Origin: Egicoccus halophilus
GTDB taxonomy: Bacteria > Actinomycetota > Nitriliruptoria > Nitriliruptorales > Nitriliruptoraceae
Assembly: GCF_004300825.1 (NCBI RefSeq)
Contig: NZ_CP036250.1
Location: forward strand, 3,855,001 to 3,919,000
DNA: 64,000 bases
Direction of reading: 5' to 3'
The translations under genes and the position numbers were made by a program. Below are positions 1-12,938 of the stretch, piece by piece. Under the pieces are notes generated by a model, which searched no databases, had not been told where the DNA came from, and saw only the letters and a list, made by a program, of their open reading frames with translations. Each line of letters begins with the position of its first letter. Within the stretch, counting starts at the first letter, position 1.

Positions 1-1032
1 AGCGACGACCAGTTCACGCTCGTCACCGTGCCCTCGCGGGTGGAGGTCGACGAGGTCCGTTCCGTGCACGTGACCTCCCATGCCTGGGCGACCGAGAGCT
101 TCCGCGAACGCCTGCTGCAGATGGCCGACGACGGCATCATCAACTCGATCGCCCTCACCCTCAAGGACGAGGGTGGCCGCATCGGCTGGGACAGCGACGT
201 GGAGCTCGCCCAGCTGTCGGGGGCCAACGAGGGCGTCTACGACCTCGAGCAGACGATCGCCGACCTGCACGAGCGCGGCATCCACGTCGCGGGGCGCATC
301 GTCGCCTTCCGTGATCCGATGCTCGGGCCCTACGCGCGCGACAACGGCGACCTCGACTGGCTGGTGCAGACCACCTCCGGGGAGCCCTACACCGGCCGCT
401 ACGAGTGCTGCTTCACCAACTTCGCCCATCCCGAGGTGATCGAGTACAACCTCGCGATCGCCGAGGAGGCCGCCCGGGCCGGCGTCGACGACATCCTGTG
501 GGACTACATCCGCAAGCCCGACGGCCCGCGGGACAACCTCGTGCTCGAAGGCATCCCCAACGACGAGCCGCTCGAGCCGGCCATCATCGAGTTCACCCGG
601 CAGGCCGACGAACGGCTCTCGCGCTACGGGATCGGGCACGGTGCGTCGCTGTACGGCATCGCCGCCGACCGGCCGACCCAGATCGCCCAGGACGTGCCGG
701 GCATGTCCGAGCACCTCGACTACGTCGCCCCGATGATCTACCCGTCGCACTGGGGGCCGGGCGAGTACGGCGTGGCGGATCCCAACCGGCAGCCCTACGA
801 CATCATCACCGCCACGCTCGAGGTCTGGCAGGACGCGGTCGAGGGCACCGACACGCGCATCGTGCCGTGGCTCGAGGACACCACCTACCGGGCCTGGGAC
901 CGGCCGTTCCAGGTCCGGGAACAGATCCGGGCCTCGCGTGACCAGGGCATCGACGAGTTCCTCATGTGGGACCCGAGCGTGCGCTACACGCCGGAGGCCT
1001 ACGACGCGATGCCGCAGGACCGCGAGGAGTGA
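1..1032 (+). CDS. Putative glycoside hydrolase (DUF4015-like), 5' end outside the window
   Basis: The frame is open from base 1 and ends with TGA at 1030-1032, so the N-terminus is missing. The GTG at 28 is internal, because coding-like residues precede it. The visible part resembles the DUF4015 putative glycosyl hydrolase domain, a (beta/alpha)8-type fold. Landmarks are TLKDEGGRIGW, an ADLHERGIHVAGRIVAFRDP stretch, DDILWDYIRKPDGPR and DYVAPMIYPSHW. Members are usually secreted or surface-anchored, and the substrate is unknown. Family assignment rests on pattern recognition. Localisation cannot be judged without the N-terminus. Confidence 0.75.
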   Translation, partial: SDDQFTLVTVPSRVEVDEVRSVHVTSHAWATESFRERLLQMADDGIINSIALTLKDEGGRIGWDSDVELAQLSGANEGVYDLEQTIADLHERGIHVAGRIVAFRDPMLGPYARDNGDLDWLVQTTSGEPYTGRYECCFTNFAHPEVIEYNLAIAEEAARAGVDDILWDYIRKPDGPRDNLVLEGIPNDEPLEPAIIEFTRQADERLSRYGIGHGASLYGIAADRPTQIAQDVPGMSEHLDYVAPMIYPSHWGPGEYGVADPNRQPYDIITATLEVWQDAVEGTDTRIVPWLEDTTYRAWDRPFQVREQIRASRDQGIDEFLMWDPSVRYTPEAYDAMPQDREE

Positions 1033-3240: not shown

Positions 3241-6200
3241 TCAGCCCTTGCCGACGGGGTCGAAGGTGTCGCCGAGCAGCTGCTCGAGTTCCTGGTCGTG
3301 CACCACGTGCTGACCGGCGGCCGGCGACGCCGACGGCACCCGGGCCGCGTGGCGCAGCTTGCGGCCGTCGTCGAGCTCGTCGAGCAGGTTCCACAGCCGC
3401 CCGTCGACGAAGCCCCAACCGCCCATGTTGGACGGCTCCTCCTGCACCCAGACGACGTCCTTGGCGTTCGGATAGGACGCGAGGATCTCGCGGATCTGGT
3501 CGCCGGGGAACGGGTAGAGCTGTTCGACGCGAACCACCGCGACCGGCGCCTCGCGCGTGTCGCGGGCCTTCATCAGGTCGTAGGCGACCTTGCCGAACGA
3601 CAGCGTCACCGCCTGCACCTGCGACCGGTCGCCCTCGGCCCACGTCGGGTCGTCGAGCGTCTCGCGGAACGAACCCGCCGTGAACTCGTCGATGTTCGAG
3701 AAGGCGTTGGGCGAGCGCAGCAGCGACTTCGGCGTGAAGATGATCAGCGGCTTGCGGACCTCGCGGTGCATCTGCCGCCGCAGCACATGGAAGTACTGCG
3801 CCGCGGTGGTGCAGTTCACGACCTGGATGTTGTCCTCGGCGCACAGCGTCAGGAACCGCTCGATGCGGCCCGACGAGTGCTCCGGCCCCTGGCCCTCGAA
3901 GCCGTGCGGGAGCAGCAGCACGAGCCCGGAGGTCTCACCCCACTTGTCCTCGGCGGCGACGATGAACTGGTCGATGATGATCTGGGCGCCGTTGACGAAG
4001 TCGCCGAACTGGGCTTCCCAGGCGACCAGGGACGTCTTGTCCTCCACCGAGTAGCCGTACTCGAAACCGACGGCCGCGTACTCGCTGAGCAGCGAGTCGT
4101 AGATGAAGAACTTGCCCTGCTCGTCGTCGAGCTTCTGCAGCGGCAGATGGTCCTCGCCGGTCTTGAAGTCGACCTGGACCGCGTGCCGTTGCGAGAAGGT
4201 GCCGCGCCGCGAGTCCTGCCCGGCGAGCCGGACGTTGGTGCCCTCGAGCACCAGCGAGCCGAACGCGAGCGTCTCGCCGAAGGCCCAGTCGATCGTCCCG
4301 GCGTCGTAGCGCTCCCGGGCCTTCTTGAAGATCCGGTCGAGCTTGGGGTGCCGGGTGAAGCCCTCGGGCACGTCGAACTGGTTGGCCGCGATGCGGTCGA
4401 GGACGTCCCTGGCCACCCCCGTCTCGGCCGGCGGCAGGATGGAGGTCGACTCCTCGGGACGGATCGCCTTGGGCGGTTCGGGCGGGGCGGCCTGCTTGGT
4501 GGAGCTGAACGCCTCCTCGAGACGTGCCTCGAAGTCCTGGAGGAACTCCTCGGCCTGCTCGATGGAGATGTCGCCGCGGCGGACCAGTCGCTCGGTGTAG
4601 AGCTTGCGCACCGAGCGCAGGTTGTCGATGACCTCGTACATCTGCGGCTGCGTGAACGACGGGTCGTCCGCCTCGTTGTGGCCGTGACGCCGGTAGCAGA
4701 TCAGGTCGATGACGATGTCGCGGTGGAACCGCTGGCGGTACTCGAACGCCAGCCGGGCCACCCGCACGACCGCCTCGGGGTCGTCGCCGTTGACGTGCAG
4801 GATGGGCGCGTGGACCGTCTTGGCCACGTCGGTGGCGTAGTACGACGAGCGGGCCGCGTGCGGCGAGGTGGTGAACCCGACCTGGTTGTTGATGACGACG
4901 TGGATCGTCCCGCCGGTGCGGTAGCCCCGCAGCTGCGAGAGGTTGAGGGTCTCGGTGACCACGCCCTGGCCGGCGAAGGCGGCGTCGCCGTGCATCAGCA
5001 GCGGCAGCGCCGGGTAGACGTACTCCTCGCCGCGGTCGTAGCGGTCCTGCTTGGCCCGCGCGATGCCCTCGACGACCGGGTTGACGGCCTCGAGGTGCGA
5101 GGGGTTGGGCGGCAGGTGCAGCTCGACGGTGTTGCCCGAGCGGGCCTCGTACACCCCGTGGGTTCCCAGGTGGTACTTGACGTCGCCGGAGCCCTGGACG
5201 GTGTCGGGGTCGATGTGCCCCTCGAACTCGCCGAAGATCTGGTGGTAGGACTTGCCCACGATGTTGGAGAGCACGTTGAGGCGGCCGCGGTGCGCCATGC
5301 CCATCACGATGTCGGCCATGTCGGCGTCGTCGGCGGCGGCCTCGCAGACCGCGTCGAGCAGCGGGATCAGGCTCTCGCCACCCTCGATGCCGAAGCGCTT
5401 CTGCCCGACGTACTTGGTGTGCAGGAACGACTCGAACGCCTCGGCCGCGTTGAGCCGTTCGAGGATCCACAGCTGGTCCTCCGGCGAGAGCTCGTCGTCG
5501 ACGCCCTCGACCTTCTCGCGGATCCAGTGCTTCTGCTCGGGGTCGAGCACGTGGCCGTACTCGATGCCGATGGTGCGGCAGTAGGCGTCACGCAGCACAC
5601 CCAGGATCTTCTGCAGCGGCATGCGTCGCGGCGTCCCGCCGATGTCGGTGATGAAGTCGCGGTCGAGGTCCCAGATCGAGAGCCCGTAGTAGGTCGGGTC
5701 GAGCTCGTTGTGCATCGCCTTCGGCTGCAGGCGCAGCGGGTCGAGGTCGGCGATCAGGTGGCCGCGCACGCGGTACATGTTCGCCAGCTGGTCGACCTTG
5801 CTCTGCTTGGCGAGCAGGTCGAACTCGTCGTCGAAGTCGCTCGAGTCCGGTCGCCAGCGGGCCGGCTCGTAGGGCAGGCCGAGCGCACTGAAGACCTCGT
5901 CGTAGAAGCCGTGCTCCCCGAGCAGCAGTTCGTGGACGCGCTTGAGGAACAGCCCCGACTCGGCGCCCTGGATGACCCGGTGGTCGTAGGTCGAGGTCAG
6001 CGTGATGACCTTCGACACGCCGAGCTTGGCGATCGTGCGCGGGTCGGCTGCCTGGTAGCCGGCCGGGTAGTCGATCGACCCGACGCCGAGGATCGCCGCC
6101 TGGCCCGACATCAGCCGCGGGATCGAGTGCACGGTGCCGATGGTGCCCGGGTTGGTGACGGTGATGGTGCCACCGGAGAACATCGCCGGGTCGAGCTTGC

Positions 6201-6879
6201 CCGTGCGGATCTTGCGGATGATCTCCTCGTAGGCCCGCAGGAACTCGTCGAAGGCGAGCGCGTCGGCGTCCTGGATCACCGGGACGAGCAGGCTGCGCGA
6301 GCCGTCCTTGTTCTCCACGTCGACGGCGAGACCGAGCCCGAAGTGGTCGGCGCGGCGCAGCGCCGGCTTGCCGTCCTCGGTCTGGGCGTAGGTCGACTTC
6401 ATGGCCGGCACGGCGTCGACGGCGCGCACCATCGCGTACGCGATCAGGTGGGTGAACGACACCTTGCCGCCACGGGTGCGGCGCAGGTAGTTGTTGACGA
6501 TGCGCCGATTCACCTCGAGCAGCTTCGCGGGGACGTCGCGCACCGAGGTGGCGGTGGGCACGCCGAGCGAGGTCTCCATGTTCTCGACGATGCGCGCGCC
6601 CACGCCACGGATCCGGCTGGCCGCGGGGTCGTCGGCGGCCACGGTCGGCGCGGTGCGCGCGACACCGGACGCGCCCGCAGCACCGTTGCCGGAGGGCTTC
6701 GAGGCCGTGCGAGCGGCACCGTTGCCGGTCCGGCCCTGGTCCTCGGGCCGGTAGTCGGCGAAGAAGTCTCGCCAGCTCTTGGACAGCGCGTCCGGGTTGT
6801 CGCGGTACTGCTCGTACATCTCCTCGACGAGCCAGGCGTTGAGCTCCGACTGGGACGAGGCGGCGGGTTGGTTGGCCAT
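3241..6879 (-). CDS. kgd: Multifunctional 2-oxoglutarate decarboxylase/dehydrogenase E1-E2 fusion (Kgd)
   Basis: A 1212-residue actinobacterial Kgd/OdhA-type enzyme of the TCA cycle. Order: an N-terminal helix (ELNAWLVEEMYEQYRDNP), a linker rich in Ala/Gly, an E2 succinyltransferase-like core (about residues 85-330; GGTITVTNPGTIGT and the TYDHRVIQGAES active-site motif), then the thiamine-diphosphate E1 domain (MGMAHRGRLNVLSNI, HGDAAFAGQG, GHNEADDPSFTQP) and the transketolase-like C-terminal part (LAGQDSRRGTFSQRH). No lipoyl domain is present, as usual in this family. ATG 6879 was chosen because MANQP begins the conserved helix. The upstream ATG at 6957 adds a Pro-rich, unconserved stretch. 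A strong terminator follows, so it is likely monocistronic. Confidence 0.95.
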   Translation of the reverse strand: MANQPAASSQSELNAWLVEEMYEQYRDNPDALSKSWRDFFADYRPEDQGRTGNGAARTASKPSGNGAAGASGVARTAPTVAADDPAASRIRGVGARIVENMETSLGVPTATSVRDVPAKLLEVNRRIVNNYLRRTRGGKVSFTHLIAYAMVRAVDAVPAMKSTYAQTEDGKPALRRADHFGLGLAVDVENKDGSRSLLVPVIQDADALAFDEFLRAYEEIIRKIRTGKLDPAMFSGGTITVTNPGTIGTVHSIPRLMSGQAAILGVGSIDYPAGYQAADPRTIAKLGVSKVITLTSTYDHRVIQGAESGLFLKRVHELLLGEHGFYDEVFSALGLPYEPARWRPDSSDFDDEFDLLAKQSKVDQLANMYRVRGHLIADLDPLRLQPKAMHNELDPTYYGLSIWDLDRDFITDIGGTPRRMPLQKILGVLRDAYCRTIGIEYGHVLDPEQKHWIREKVEGVDDELSPEDQLWILERLNAAEAFESFLHTKYVGQKRFGIEGGESLIPLLDAVCEAAADDADMADIVMGMAHRGRLNVLSNIVGKSYHQIFGEFEGHIDPDTVQGSGDVKYHLGTHGVYEARSGNTVELHLPPNPSHLEAVNPVVEGIARAKQDRYDRGEEYVYPALPLLMHGDAAFAGQGVVTETLNLSQLRGYRTGGTIHVVINNQVGFTTSPHAARSSYYATDVAKTVHAPILHVNGDDPEAVVRVARLAFEYRQRFHRDIVIDLICYRRHGHNEADDPSFTQPQMYEVIDNLRSVRKLYTERLVRRGDISIEQAEEFLQDFEARLEEAFSSTKQAAPPEPPKAIRPEESTSILPPAETGVARDVLDRIAANQFDVPEGFTRHPKLDRIFKKARERYDAGTIDWAFGETLAFGSLVLEGTNVRLAGQDSRRGTFSQRHAVQVDFKTGEDHLPLQKLDDEQGKFFIYDSLLSEYAAVGFEYGYSVEDKTSLVAWEAQFGDFVNGAQIIIDQFIVAAEDKWGETSGLVLLLPHGFEGQGPEHSSGRIERFLTLCAEDNIQVVNCTTAAQYFHVLRRQMHREVRKPLIIFTPKSLLRSPNAFSNIDEFTAGSFRETLDDPTWAEGDRSQVQAVTLSFGKVAYDLMKARDTREAPVAVVRVEQLYPFPGDQIREILASYPNAKDVVWVQEEPSNMGGWGFVDGRLWNLLDELDDGRKLRHAARVPSASPAAGQHVVHDQELEQLLGDTFDPVGKG

Positions 6880-7162
6880 GTCGGCGTTCAGGCTCCGGGG
6901 CGACGTGCCCCCAGGGTAGGGCGGCGGCGGCGAGGCTCCCCATCGGCGCACGGACACGGCGGTCGCGGAACGCGGGACCGGGAGGTGGGCGGCCGGCGCG
7001 GGGAGACACGGGAACGGCAGTCGGGGACGACCCCGCTGCCACGACCGGCAGTGGACCGGCCCTCCGGGCGCACGTCAAGCCCCACGGCGCGCCGATCGGG
7101 CCGTGCGCGGGGACCCGGGCGGGTACCGTTCGCGCACGGAGCCGACGGGCGTGGAGGTAGCC

Positions 7163-9094
7163 GTGAAGGACCTGCTCGTGGCGGTCCTGTCGCTGTGTGC
7201 TCTCGCCGTCGTCGCCCTGGGTGGCTGGTGGGTGCTGACCGAGAGCGAACTGTTCGCCGACTCGGCCGCCGAAGCCGACCCGGCCGAGACGGCAGGCGCC
7301 TTCGCGGCTGCCTGGGAGCGCGGGGACGCCGAGAGCCTGGCAGAGCTGGCCCGCGAGGACGACGACACGGTGCGTGCCACCTACGAGCAGTTCGCCGAGG
7401 GGCTGATGGCGGACAGCGACGCGCTGGAGGTCCGGCCCGGGCCGACCGAGCAGGTCCAGGACGGCCGCGCGCGCACCCCGGTGGCCGTCACGGTGGACGG
7501 TCCGTTCGGCGAGGTGAGCTGGGACGTCGAACTCGAGACGGTGCGCGAACGGGGCGCGTGGGGCGTGGTGTGGTCGACCGCGACGGTGCACCCCTCGTTG
7601 CGGCCGGGCATGGTCTTCGACGTCGTGCGCGAGGAGGTCGACCGCGCGCCGATCCTCGCCGTCGGTGGACAGGAGCTGGCCGGCGAACGCGAACAGGTCA
7701 CGGTCGGGTTCGAACCCGGCACCGTCGCCGACCGCGACGAGCTCGTGGCCACGTTCGAGGAGGTGCTCCCCGACACCGGCGAGATCGTCGAGCGGCTGTA
7801 CGCCCGCGGCGGGTTGGTCGACGACTGGTTCTACCCGGTCATCAGCCTGCCGGCCGAGCAGGCCGACGAGGTGCGTGCCGCGCTGCGGGGGGTGCGGGGG
7901 GTGGTACTGCGCAGCGGCACCGGCCGGGCGTTGTACGACGCCGGTTTCGCCCACCACGTCGTCGGTGTGGTCGGTCCGGTGACCGCGGAGCAGCTCGAGC
8001 GGCTCGGGCCGAGCTACGCGTCGGGCGACGAGGTGGGACAGTTCGGGCTCGAGGCCGTCTACGAGTCCGACCTCGTCGACGCCGTCCGGATCCGTGCGGT
8101 CCTGCGCGAGCGCGCCGAGGGCGCAGTCCACGAGGTCCTGGGCGAAGCGCTGGCGGGCGGGCTGGACGCCGTGCGCACCACGCTGGACGTACCCGTGCAG
8201 CAGGCGGTCGAGAACGCCCTGGCCGGCGTCGAGGACGAGGCCGCGATCGTGGTCGTCGACGCTGCCGACGGCGCGATCCGGGCGGCCGCGAGCCGGCCGC
8301 TGACGGCCTACAACCGGGCCTTCGAGGGCCGCTACGCGCCCGGATCGGCGTTCCGGCTGGTGACCGGCGAGGCCCTGCTCGCGGCCGGCAACGTGCCGGG
8401 CTCCGAGGTCGTGTGTGACGAGCGGACCACGGTCGGCGGGCGCACGGTGACCAACGCCGAAGGTCCGGCGCTGGGCACCACCTCGCTGCAGCAGGCCTTC
8501 GCCGCCGGTTGTGACACCACCCTGGCGACGCTCGCGGCCGACGCGCTCGGGCCCGAAGGGCTCGCCGCCGCCGCCGAACGCTTCGGGGTCGGGACCCAGC
8601 CGCAGCTGCCGGTGCCGTCCTTCGGCGGTTCGTTCCCGACCCCCGCCGACACCACCGAGCTGGTCGAAGCGGCGGTCGGGCTCGGGCGGGTCGAGGTGTC
8701 GCCGTTGCAGTTGGCCAGCATGGCGGCCGCCGCCCGCTCGGGCGTGTGGCACCCGCCCTCGCTGATGGTCGACGACGAGCCGGACGAGGCCCGCCAGCTC
8801 GCGGCCGGGACGCTCGACGACCTGCGAACGTTGCTGCGGGCGGCGGTCACCGACGGCGACGCCGTCGCGGCCGCCGGCGCGGCCGGGGACGGCGCGACGG
8901 GCGAGCTGGTCGAAGGGGTCGCCGGCACGGCCCGCACGAGCGGTGGCGAGCGACACGCCTGGTTCGCCGGCTCCTGGGGGCAGTACGGTTTCGCGGTGCT
9001 CGTCGAGGACGGCGGGAGCGGGGCCGAGGTCGCCGCCCCGATCGCCGGCCGACTCGTCGACGAGTTCGAGCTCCAGCTCGCCGCCGACGGTTGA
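7163..9094 (+). CDS. Penicillin-binding-protein-like membrane protein lacking transpeptidase motifs
   Basis: A 643-residue protein with an N-terminal membrane anchor (LLVAVLSLCALAVVALGGWW), an NTF2/MecA-N-like domain (about 40-160), a dimerisation-type middle part and a transpeptidase fold (about 320-640). It is a paralogue of the PBP at 11001-12938. All three catalytic motifs are changed: SxxK is S395-A-F-R398, SxN is C450-D-T452, and KTG is V586-A-G588. It should not acylate, so it is probably a non-enzymatic scaffold or regulator of cell-wall synthesis. GTG 7163 is preceded by GGAGG at 7153-7157, 5 bp away, which decides the start. Confidence 0.85.
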   Translation: MKDLLVAVLSLCALAVVALGGWWVLTESELFADSAAEADPAETAGAFAAAWERGDAESLAELAREDDDTVRATYEQFAEGLMADSDALEVRPGPTEQVQDGRARTPVAVTVDGPFGEVSWDVELETVRERGAWGVVWSTATVHPSLRPGMVFDVVREEVDRAPILAVGGQELAGEREQVTVGFEPGTVADRDELVATFEEVLPDTGEIVERLYARGGLVDDWFYPVISLPAEQADEVRAALRGVRGVVLRSGTGRALYDAGFAHHVVGVVGPVTAEQLERLGPSYASGDEVGQFGLEAVYESDLVDAVRIRAVLRERAEGAVHEVLGEALAGGLDAVRTTLDVPVQQAVENALAGVEDEAAIVVVDAADGAIRAAASRPLTAYNRAFEGRYAPGSAFRLVTGEALLAAGNVPGSEVVCDERTTVGGRTVTNAEGPALGTTSLQQAFAAGCDTTLATLAADALGPEGLAAAAERFGVGTQPQLPVPSFGGSFPTPADTTELVEAAVGLGRVEVSPLQLASMAAAARSGVWHPPSLMVDDEPDEARQLAAGTLDDLRTLLRAAVTDGDAVAAAGAAGDGATGELVEGVAGTARTSGGERHAWFAGSWGQYGFAVLVEDGGSGAEVAAPIAGRLVDEFELQLAADG

Positions 9095-10095: not shown

Positions 10096-11004
10096 GTGAA
10101 GCTCGCGATCCTCTCGCGCAACTCCCAGCTGTACTCGACCCGTCGGCTCCGCGAGGCGGCCGAGCAGCGCGGTCACGAGGTCCGCATCGTCGACTACCTG
10201 CGCTGCGTGATCGACATCACCTCGCACCGACCGGCGATCCACTACGGCGGCGCGCGTCTCGACGCCGTCGACGCGGTCCTGCCCCGGATCGGCGCGACCC
10301 ACACCTTCTACGGCACGGCGGTGGTGCGCCAGTTCGAGATGATGGGCGTCTACCCGACCAACGACTCGCAGTCGATCTCGCGTTCCCGCGACAAGCTGCG
10401 GGCCCTGCAGTTGCTCGCTGCCGAGGGGGTGGGCCTCCCGGTCACCTCGTTCGCCCACTCGACCAAGGACATCGACGGGCTGATCTCGCTGGTCGGTGGG
10501 GCCCCCGTCGTGGTCAAGCTGCTCGAGGGCACCCAGGGCATGGGGGTCGTCCTCGCGGAGACCAAGAAGGCGGCCGAGTCGGTCATCGGTGCCTTCCGGC
10601 AGCTCAACGCCAACATCCTGGTGCAGGAGTTCATCAAGGAGGCCGGCGGGTCCGACATCCGCGCCTTCGTGGTGGGCAACCGGGTCGTCGCGGCCATGGA
10701 ACGCACCGCCGCGCCGGGCGACTTCCGCTCCAACGTCCACCGTGGCGGCGAGGCCCGCAAGGTCCGCCTCACCCCGGAGGAGCGGGCCGCCGCCAAGCGG
10801 GCCGCGAAGATCCTCGGGCTCAACGTGGCCGGTGTCGACCTGATGCGCTCGAACCACGGCCCGGTCGTGCTCGAGGTGAACTCCTCTCCCGGCCTCGAGG
10901 GCATCGAGACCACCACCGGCATCGACGTCGCCGGCAAGGTCGTCGAGTACATCGCCACCAACGCCGACGGCCGCGCCCCCTCGCGCGCCAGCAAGAAGGC
11001 ATGA
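10096..11004 (+). CDS. rimK: RimK-family ATP-grasp ligase (ribosomal protein S6-glutamate ligase type)
   Basis: A 302-residue RimK homologue. RimK enzymes add glutamate residues to the C-terminus of ribosomal protein S6 using ATP; some relatives act on other peptides or cofactors. Visible features: the pre-ATP-grasp domain ([17 protein letters not shown]), the ATP-binding Lys in [35 protein letters not shown], and metal ligands in [15 protein letters not shown]. The start is GTG 10096, because the ATG at 10088 hits a stop after three codons. The stop overlaps the ATG of the next PBP gene (ATGA), so the two are translationally coupled. Confidence 0.9.
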
Positions 11005-12938
11005 CCGACACGCTCGACCTCGGCCGCATCGCCACGCGACCACGTCGCCGGCATGCCCTCGTCGGGCTCGCGGTGCTGCTCGTCGTCGGGGTGGCCGCGG
11101 GCGGCTGGTGATGGTGGACCAGTCGGGACGAGGGGCCGGGCCCCGCCGCGGAGGCCTTCGCGGTGGCCTGGGACGACGGCGACCCGGCGTCAGGTCCGGT
11201 CTCCGGTGCCCCCGCCGGGGTCCGCGAACGCTACGCGGCGCTCGTCGAGGGCCTCGGCCCCGACGCGCCCGACGTCGCGCTCGCCTCGGTGTCGGAACCG
11301 GTCGACGGCACCGCGACCGCCGAGCTGACGGTGGGCTGGGACCTCGGTGGGGAGCGCCGCTGGAGCTATCCCACGCGGGCCGAGCTGGTTCGGGGCGACG
11401 ACGGCTGGCAGGTCGTCTTCACGCCCGAGGTGGTGCACCCCGAGCTGGGCGACGACCTTGGCCTGACCATCCGGCGTACCCGGCCGGTCCGCGGCGAGGT
11501 CGTCGGCACCGACGGCACGCCGATCGTGACGCCGCGTCCGGTCGTGGACGTCGGCGTCGAGCCGGCACGGACCGACGACGTGGCGACGCTGGTCGACGAC
11601 CTGCGCGACATCCTCGCCATCTCCGGCGACGGGCTCGCGGAACGGATCGTGTCCGCGGACCCGAACGCGTTCGTGCCGGTCGTCACGCTGCGCGAGGACG
11701 CCTTCGCGGCCGTCGAGGACGAACTGCTGCCGCTGCCGGGCACGGTGGTACGCCGCGGCACGCTGCCGCTGGCGCCGACCGCGGACTTCGCCCGGGCCCT
11801 GCTCGGCCGGGCCGGGGACGTCACGGCCGAGCGGATCGAAGCGCACCCGCAGCGCTACGCCCCGGGCGACGTCGTCGGCCTGTCCGGCCTGCAGCGCCGC
11901 TACGACGAGCAGCTGTTCGGCGAGGCCGGCCGACAGGTGGTCGCCGTTCCCGTCGCGGACGCGCCCGAGGGCGTCGAGGAGGCGGTGCTGCACGAGGTGC
12001 CCGCGGTCGACGGCAGCGACGTGACCGTCACGCTCGACGAGCGGGTGCAACGCGCCGCCGACGAGACGCTGGCCGACGTGTCCGACGCCCCGAGCGCGCT
12101 GGTCGCCGTCCGGGTGAGCGACGGACACGTGGTCGCGGTCGCCAACGGCCCCGGCACGGCCGGCGCCGAGATCGCGGTGTCCGGGCAGTACGCACCCGGT
12201 TCGACCTTCAAGGTGGTGACGACCGCGGCGCTGCTCGCCGACGGTCTCGATCCCGACGCGACCGTCGGGTGCGAGGCCGAGGCCGTGGTCGACGGCCGTC
12301 GCTTCACCAACGCCGAGGACGGCGCCCGCGGCCGGGTCCCGTTCCGTGAGGCGTTCGCCCAGTCGTGCAACACCACCTTCGTGTCGCTCGCCGACGACCT
12401 CGACGACGACGAGCTGGCCGAGGCCGCCGGCCGGTTCGGCGTCGGCGGCGGACACACGCTCGGCGTGGACGCGTTCACCGGCTCGATCCCCGTCAACGAC
12501 GGCGCGACCGACCGGGCCGCGGCGGCGATCGGGCAGGGCCGCAACCTCGCCAGTCCCCTCGCGATGGCCGACGTGGCCGCGACCGTCGCCCGTGGTGGGC
12601 ACCGGACGCCGCGGCTGGTGCTCGACCCGGATCCGCGGGACCCGGCCGGCGAGGCCCCGCTCGACCCGCAGCTCGCCACCGACCTGCAGGCGCTGACACG
12701 GCAGGTCGTCACCGACGGCACCGGCTCGGCCCTCGCCGACGTGCCCGGCGACCCGGTGCACGGCAAGACCGGCACCGCCGAGTACGGCACCGAGACGCCC
12801 CCACGGACCCACGCGTGGTTCATCGGCCACCAGGGCGACCTCGCCTTCGCCGTCCTGGTCGCCGAGACCCGGGACAGCGTCGGCGGGCGCGTGGCGGCCC
12901 CGCTCGCCGCCGACTTCCTGACCCGCCTCGCCGACTGA
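11001..12938 (+). CDS. Penicillin-binding protein with intact transpeptidase motifs, interrupted by in-frame TGA at 11109
   Basis: From ATG 11001 the frame encodes a basic N-terminus and a membrane anchor ([19 protein letters not shown]). It then meets TGA at 11109-11111 and continues in the same frame ([10 protein letters not shown]...) to 12938. The paralogue at 7163 has GGWWVLT where this reads GGW-stop-WWT, so the stop looks like a TGG-to-TGA change. Downstream lie a MecA-N-like domain and a transpeptidase with STFK (Ser codon 12201), SCN (12363) and KTG (12765), all intact. If translation restarts, the first in-frame start is GTG 11163. That gives a 591-residue protein without an anchor or signal peptide. 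Possible causes are pseudogenisation, readthrough or a base error. Confidence 0.8.

What the first reader, a model, noticed from the sequence alone, without database searches (positions are those of the whole stretch)
7163..9094. PBP paralogue that has lost all three catalytic motifs
SxxK is S-A-F-R, SxN is C-D-T and KTG is V-A-G, while the fold and membrane anchor are kept over 643 residues. The frame is intact over its full length, which argues against simple decay. It may be a pseudo-transpeptidase that regulates or scaffolds cell-wall synthesis, possibly by pairing with the active paralogue 2 kb downstream.
Basis: seen in the sequence. Interest (0 to 1): 0.6.

Follow-up and report, generated by a model that had tools for sequence, protein, structure and literature searches.

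The report
Cell-wall enzyme that lost its catalysis
A cell-wall cross-linking protein in this actinobacterium has kept its whole fold while changing almost only its active-site residues, and the same gene has lost catalysis independently at least three times in its family, so it is probably kept as a non-catalytic partner rather than as an enzyme.

Summary
All eight other transpeptidase-domain proteins of the genome keep their motifs. Orthologues at the same kgd-linked locus in three same-genus genomes (61-66% identity) are fully intact, so the loss is specific to this lineage. It does not look like decay: of 44 columns invariant in 43 intact homologues it changes seven, five in the catalytic triads and one in the adjoining helix; frame, codon signature and fold are kept. 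The orthologous locus lost catalysis independently at least twice more (single-clade tree rejected). In one other genus the dead form is shared by two species 63% identical and still under purifying selection, so a dead PBP there probably does a non-catalytic job. Losses track the presence of a second, active paralogue (PBP-b). Best reading: a natural pseudo-transpeptidase with a structural or allosteric role in wall synthesis, inferred not shown.

The parts
7163..9094 (+). PBP-a: catalytically dead MecA_N-type class B PBP, 643 aa, GTG start
   Evidence: open frame, Pfam domains, start matches sister species
7153..7157 (+). Shine-Dalgarno-like GGAGG, 5 nt before the start codon
   Evidence: read directly
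7166..7243 (+). N-terminal membrane helix, residues 2-27
   Evidence: hydrophobic stretch, helix 2-27 in the AF2 model
7280..7606 (+). MecA_N (NTF2-like) domain, residues 40-148
   Evidence: PF05223, E 1.2e-9
7634..8074 (+). PBP dimerisation (pedestal) domain, residues 158-304
   Evidence: PF03717, E 1.4e-12
8243..9058 (+). Transpeptidase domain, residues 361-632, catalytically dead
   Evidence: PF00905, E 2.2e-28
8345..8356 (+). SxxK site: S395-A-F-R398 (Lys to Arg)
   Evidence: alignment
8507..8515 (+). SxN site: G449-C-D451 (Ser to Gly, Asn to Asp)
   Evidence: alignment
8522..8524 (+). F454L, in the helix after SxN; Leu or Ile in all three dead lineages
   Evidence: alignment
8681..8683 (+). 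Q507L, otherwise invariant Gln, changed only in this species
   Evidence: alignment
8918..8926 (+). KTG site: V586-A-G588 (Lys to Val, Thr to Ala)
   Evidence: alignment
11001..12938 (+). PBP-b: paralogue with intact STFK/SCN/KTG, 37% identical to PBP-a, interrupted near its 5' end
   Evidence: translation, Pfam, homologues
11109..11111 (+). in-frame TGA (codon 37) in PBP-b, just after its membrane helix; TGG in four other genomes
3241..6957 (-). kgd (multifunctional 2-oxoglutarate dehydrogenase), divergent neighbour that marks the orthologous locus
   Evidence: Pfam, synteny
10096..11004 (+). RimK-like ATP-grasp ligase, conserved neighbour between PBP-a and PBP-b
   Evidence: Pfam, synteny

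Best explanation
PBP-a is a natural pseudo-transpeptidase. It descends from an active MecA_N-type class B PBP at the kgd-linked locus, and in this lineage it lost the general base, the SxN serine and the KTG lysine while the membrane anchor, NTF2-like domain, pedestal and transpeptidase fold stayed under selection. It most likely still sits in a peptidoglycan-synthesis complex and acts by binding: holding or allosterically modulating partner synthases or nascent glycan, while cross-linking is done by other class B PBPs (originally PBP-b, plus the three SEDS-linked ones). Shown here by computation: motif loss, orthology by synteny, intact sisters, at least three independent losses, active-site-focused substitution, a modelled PBP fold, and purifying selection on the dead form in another genus. 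Inferred: that this species' protein is made, that it has a function, and that the function is structural or allosteric. The partner is unknown.
For: Of 44 columns invariant (at least 97%) in 43 intact homologues, PBP-a changes 7 (K398R, S449G, N451D, F454L, Q507L, K586V, T587A); twelve intact proteins left out in turn change 0-4. Five of the 7 fall among 7 catalytic columns, p 3.7e-4; no neutral simulation of 1600 gave this pattern. With the main motif columns and other columns altered in dead lineages removed, the tree still needs three losses, and one dead clade is rejected (p-AU 4e-18). S449G is shared by all three losses, F454 becomes Leu or Ile, and K586 becomes Val or Ile: convergent remodelling. 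Dead G059a and G060a share D-V/M-F-M, GCD and IVG, are 63% identical, and differ at codon positions 1/2/3 by .23/.20/.48 in the transpeptidase domain; omega = 1 is rejected. In PBP-a, omega is unchanged in the NTF2-like and pedestal domains (.097 vs .102.069 vs .061) and raised only mildly in the transpeptidase domain (.076 vs .046). GC by codon position is normal (.80/.52/.93). AF2 mean pLDDT is 92, with full-length PDB matches to PBP2a and B. subtilis PBP3. Precedent: inactive B. subtilis PBP2B keeps a crucial structural role while the MecA_N-type PBP3 supplies catalysis (PMC5656894); C. difficile PBP3 supports division without its catalytic activity (PMC12713402).
Against: Synonymous sites are near saturation, so omega is an average over the branch: a very recent release of all constraint cannot be excluded from rates alone. 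The mild rise in the transpeptidase domain is matched by PBP-b in the same lineage (.076 vs .049). No expression, binding or localisation data. PBP-b, the presumed catalytic stand-in, is itself interrupted in this genome. The AF2 alignment holds intact homologues, so the model shows compatibility, not stability.
Confidence: 0.6

Rival explanations
1. Early decay by redundancy: a second PBP of the same class made PBP-a dispensable, the active site went first, and the gene is on its way out, with a frame that merely has not broken yet.
For: Sister orthologues are intact, so the loss is young. Dead PBP-a occurs in 3 of 5 genomes with PBP-b and in none of 22 without it (Fisher p 0.003; 0.011 if G060, dead with no PBP-b found, is counted; not corrected for phylogeny). 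The PBP-a branch is longer than its sister's (0.37 vs 0.15). PBP-b in the same genome carries a nonsense codon.
Against: Random decay should hit the other 37 invariant columns in proportion; only two are hit, one next to SxN. Indels against sisters are all in frame. The N-terminal domains show no relaxation. In the genus of G059 and G060 a dead form is maintained.
Confidence: 0.27
2. PBP-a is a peptidoglycan or muropeptide-binding sensor that works through its NTF2-like and pedestal domains, with the dead transpeptidase domain as a passive or ligand-binding module, comparable to the allosteric site reported for S. aureus PBP2a.
For: NTF2-like and pedestal domains are the most normally constrained parts in this lineage; full-length fold match to PBP2a, including entries with ligand at its allosteric site.
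Against: No ligand-site residues were tested, there is no signalling domain, and identity to PBP2a is only 17% over the structural alignment.
Confidence: 0.07
3. PBP-a keeps an altered chemistry (Ser395 with Arg398), for example slow hydrolysis or acyl transfer on a different substrate.
For: Ser395, the KTG glycine and the surrounding fold are kept.
Against: The general base, the SxN serine and the KTG lysine and threonine are all gone, and the other dead lineages have lost the nucleophile serine as well (T or D).
Confidence: 0.05
4. Sequencing or assembly artefact.
For: The in-frame TGA in PBP-b is a single-base difference that could be an error.
Against: Seven concordant codon changes concentrated at active-site positions in an open frame with normal codon statistics are not expected from read errors; unrelated assemblies show the same kind of loss.
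Confidence: 0.01

Closest known systems
Bacillus subtilis PBP3 (PbpC) and S. aureus PBP2a (MecA), MecA_N-type class B PBPs
   Same: Domain order (helix, NTF2-like, pedestal, transpeptidase) and full-length fold
   Different: Those are active transpeptidases with intact motifs; PBP-a keeps only Ser395 and Gly588 of the catalytic triads
Catalytic mutants of class B PBPs made in the laboratory (B. subtilis PBP2B S309A; C. difficile SpoVD S311A and catalytically inactive PBP3)
   Same: A class B PBP without transpeptidase activity that can still support wall synthesis (PMC5656894, PMC12713402)
   Different: Those are engineered mutants; here the loss is natural, involves several motifs and has recurred. 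PBP-a has no linked SEDS gene
Degenerate LytM factors EnvC and NlpD (from memory, not tested)
   Same: Cell-wall enzyme homologues that lost catalysis and act as activators
   Different: Different enzyme class (amidase activators); no homology claimed

Membership tests
Class B PBP, MecA_N type | MecA_N, PBP_dimer and Transpeptidase domains above curated cut-offs | tested here: met
Class B PBP, MecA_N type | N-terminal membrane anchor | tested here: met
   helix 2-27 in sequence and model
Class B PBP, MecA_N type | Full-length fold of PBP2a, PBP3 or PBP5 | tested here: met
   Foldseek best E 1e-38 over about 650 columns, TM 0.5-0.6 with large rmsd, read as a difference in domain angles; residues 159-643 reach Z about 47 against class B PBP structures
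Catalytically active transpeptidase (DD-transpeptidase) | SxxK, SxN or SxD, and KTG or KSG | tested here: not met
   SAFR, GCD, VAG
Catalytically active transpeptidase (DD-transpeptidase) | Acylation by beta-lactam | not testable with these tools
   needs a Bocillin assay
Pseudoenzyme (retained non-catalytic homologue) | Catalytic residues lost, fold residues kept | tested here: met
   7 of 44 invariants changed, 5 of them catalytic
Pseudoenzyme (retained non-catalytic homologue) | Dead state maintained by selection | tested here: inconclusive
   met for the G059 and G060 orthologues; in this species only one genome is held, and the loss lies on its terminal branch
Pseudoenzyme (retained non-catalytic homologue) | A demonstrated non-catalytic function | not testable with these tools
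   needs genetics or interaction assays
Low-affinity resistance PBP (PBP2a, PBP5) | Active transpeptidase with low beta-lactam affinity | tested here: not met
   catalytic motifs absent; below all MEC cut-offs

The most novel reading that the evidence does not exclude
A MecA_N-type class B PBP has repeatedly been converted into a non-catalytic component of the cell-wall machinery in one actinobacterial family, with convergent remodelling of the same active-site positions, once a second active copy had appeared: a natural separation of the structural and catalytic roles of class B PBPs that, in the papers found here, has been seen with engineered mutants.
Probability: 0.5. Interest if true: 0.72.

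Novelty: new variant of a known kind. Interest (0 to 1): 0.58.

Why it matters
Whether a class B PBP has a role separable from cross-linking has been argued from engineered active-site mutants in a few Firmicutes. A lineage in which nature removed catalysis at one locus at least three times, and in one genus kept the dead form between species, gives a test set: intact, dead-with-active-paralogue and single-copy species can be compared directly. It also warns that annotation by domain (penicillin-binding protein) can name a protein that probably binds no penicillin.

Tried and rejected
Opposite-strand frames over the gene: open by GC bias only; the + frame carries all domains and homologues. 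A separate ancient dead paralogue: rejected, since all dead copies sit at the kgd-linked locus and the AU test rejects one dead clade. Branch-specific omega as a test of relaxation: limited by saturated synonymous sites; the joint model shows a mild rise confined to the transpeptidase domain (2dlnL 6.7) that PBP-b in the same lineage shares, so it is not used as evidence. The fit for the 54 shared NTF2 codons of G059a and G060a did not behave (omega at or near the bound) and is discarded. Stop-codon counts alone cannot exclude short neutral drift (P(no stop) 0.40 at 40 amino-acid changes). Compensation of the PBP-b TGA by frameshift: the overlapping ATG frame is arginine-rich and non-coding; GTG re-initiation downstream would lack the membrane helix. 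Viral contigs: no relatives. Paper searches for naturally dead PBPs found none; the library is open-access only, so this is weak evidence of absence. Foldseek TM of only 0.5-0.6 is read as a domain-angle difference, not a different fold.

Full report
OBSERVATION. The window is G000:C1:3855001-3919000 of a single-contig 3.98 Mb genome. The frame 7163-9094 (+) runs for 643 codons without a stop, has GGAGG five bases before its GTG start, and its N-terminus aligns with MKDLL... in sister species. Pfam assigns MecA_N, PBP_dimer and Transpeptidase. Read against aligned homologues, SxxK is SAFR (Ser395 kept, Lys398 to Arg), SxN is GCD, and KTG is VAG. All eight other PF00905 proteins of the genome have SxxK, SxN (one SxD) and KTG.

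ORTHOLOGUES. The class was searched with PBP-a and with PBP-b (66 genomes). In same-genus genomes G040, G041 and G042 (61-66% identity) the orthologue has STFK, SCN and KTG. The locus is the same: kgd divergent on one side, then HhH-GPD, a small DUF3309 gene and RimK on the other. The loss is therefore specific to this species' lineage. Three further orthologues at kgd-linked loci are also dead: G046 (TAFA, GCA, ITG), G059 (DVFM, GCD, IVG) and G060 (DMFM, GCD, IVG). All other sampled members are intact apart from minor variants such as KSG in G011, and G003 has a broken frame across the KTG region. Fourteen homologues elsewhere in the phylum are intact.

INDEPENDENCE. The tree needs three changes, and well-supported branches force three (quick tree; the careful search did not finish). 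With the catalytic and other dead-altered columns removed the result stands, and a single clade of dead rows is rejected (delta lnL 149, p-AU 4e-18). The AU p-value assumes a group named beforehand, and the G059/G060 branch is long, but the synteny of PBP-a with G042, G041 and G040 alone makes the loss in this species independent.

DECAY OR RETENTION. Of 44 columns at least 97% identical among 43 intact homologues, PBP-a differs at K398R, S449G, N451D, F454L, Q507L, K586V and T587A. Twelve intact sequences left out one at a time differ at 0-4. Five of seven changes fall among the seven catalytic columns (p 3.7e-4), and none of 1600 neutral simulations gave that pattern. F454 lies in the helix after SxN in the model; whether Q507 lies at the active site was not tested. 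The three losses converge: S449 to Gly in all, F454 to Leu or Ile in all, K586 to Val or Ile in all. That is what one expects if catalysis is dropped while the fold is still needed. Codon models reject omega = 1 for the PBP-a branch in each domain. With branch times shared across domains, the NTF2-like and pedestal domains show no relaxation, and the transpeptidase domain shows a mild rise (.076 vs .046) which PBP-b of the same genome also shows. Because synonymous sites are near saturation, a very late release of constraint is not excluded by rates alone.

THE CONSERVED DEAD FORM. G059a and G060a share all three lost motifs, so the loss predates their split. They are 63% identical overall, with codon-position differences of .23.20 and .48 in the transpeptidase domain, and omega = 1 is strongly rejected for the pedestal and transpeptidase domains (the omega estimates themselves are unreliable because of saturation). 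AF2 models of PBP-a (pLDDT 92) and of G059a (pLDDT 90) both have the complete PBP architecture. These models were made with intact homologues in the alignment, so they show compatibility with the fold and no more. PDB matches for PBP-a are PBP2a, B. subtilis PBP3 and E. faecium PBP5 over the full length.

THE PARALOGUE. PBP-b (11001-12938) has STFK, SCN and KTG. It forms a separate clade present in G000, G040, G042, G046 and G059, with single-copy relatives in other families. PBP-a is dead in three of the five genomes with PBP-b and in none of 22 without it; G060 is dead with no PBP-b found in an 87%-complete assembly (Fisher 0.003, or 0.011 with G060 counted; not corrected for phylogeny). In G000 itself codon 37 of PBP-b is TGA where four other genomes read TGG, directly after the membrane helix. 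The rest of the gene is intact, so this is either a very recent nonsense mutation or a sequence error.

MECHANISM. The best-supported reading is a pseudo-transpeptidase kept for binding. Literature precedent: in B. subtilis a catalytically inactive PBP2B still supports division by a structural role while PBP3, a MecA_N-type PBP, supplies catalysis (PMC5656894). In C. difficile the catalytic activity of PBP3 is dispensable for its support of asymmetric division (PMC12713402). PBP-a has no linked SEDS gene, so a dedicated SEDS partner is not indicated; the partner is unknown. Retention in this particular species is an inference at about 0.6.

NOVELTY. Domain family and fold are known. What is new, as far as the searches here show, is a natural, recurrent and in one genus conserved loss of catalysis in a class B PBP. 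Six full-text searches in an open-access library found no described case, which is weak evidence of absence.

Noticed in passing
window 11109-11111: In-frame TGA at codon 37 of the active paralogue PBP-b, TGG in G042, G040, G046 and G059; the rest of the gene is intact.
   Followed up: partly
L069 (G041): G041 has an intact PBP-a and no PBP-b between RimK and the downstream oxidoreductase, where G000 and G042 have it.
   Followed up: partly
L076:5033-6909 (G003): The single homologue in G003 is split over two frames, so the only copy may be broken there, or the assembly has an indel.
   Followed up: no
L048 (G029): The G029 homologue carries an in-frame TAG near its C-terminal end.
   Followed up: no
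L003: The PBP2-like (MrdA) protein of this genome has SCD rather than SxN, so Asn to Asp alone need not mean loss of activity.
   Followed up: no
window 28-1032: DUF4015 putative glycosyl hydrolase near the kgd/PBP locus, also found there in G042, G040, G052 and G047.
   Followed up: no
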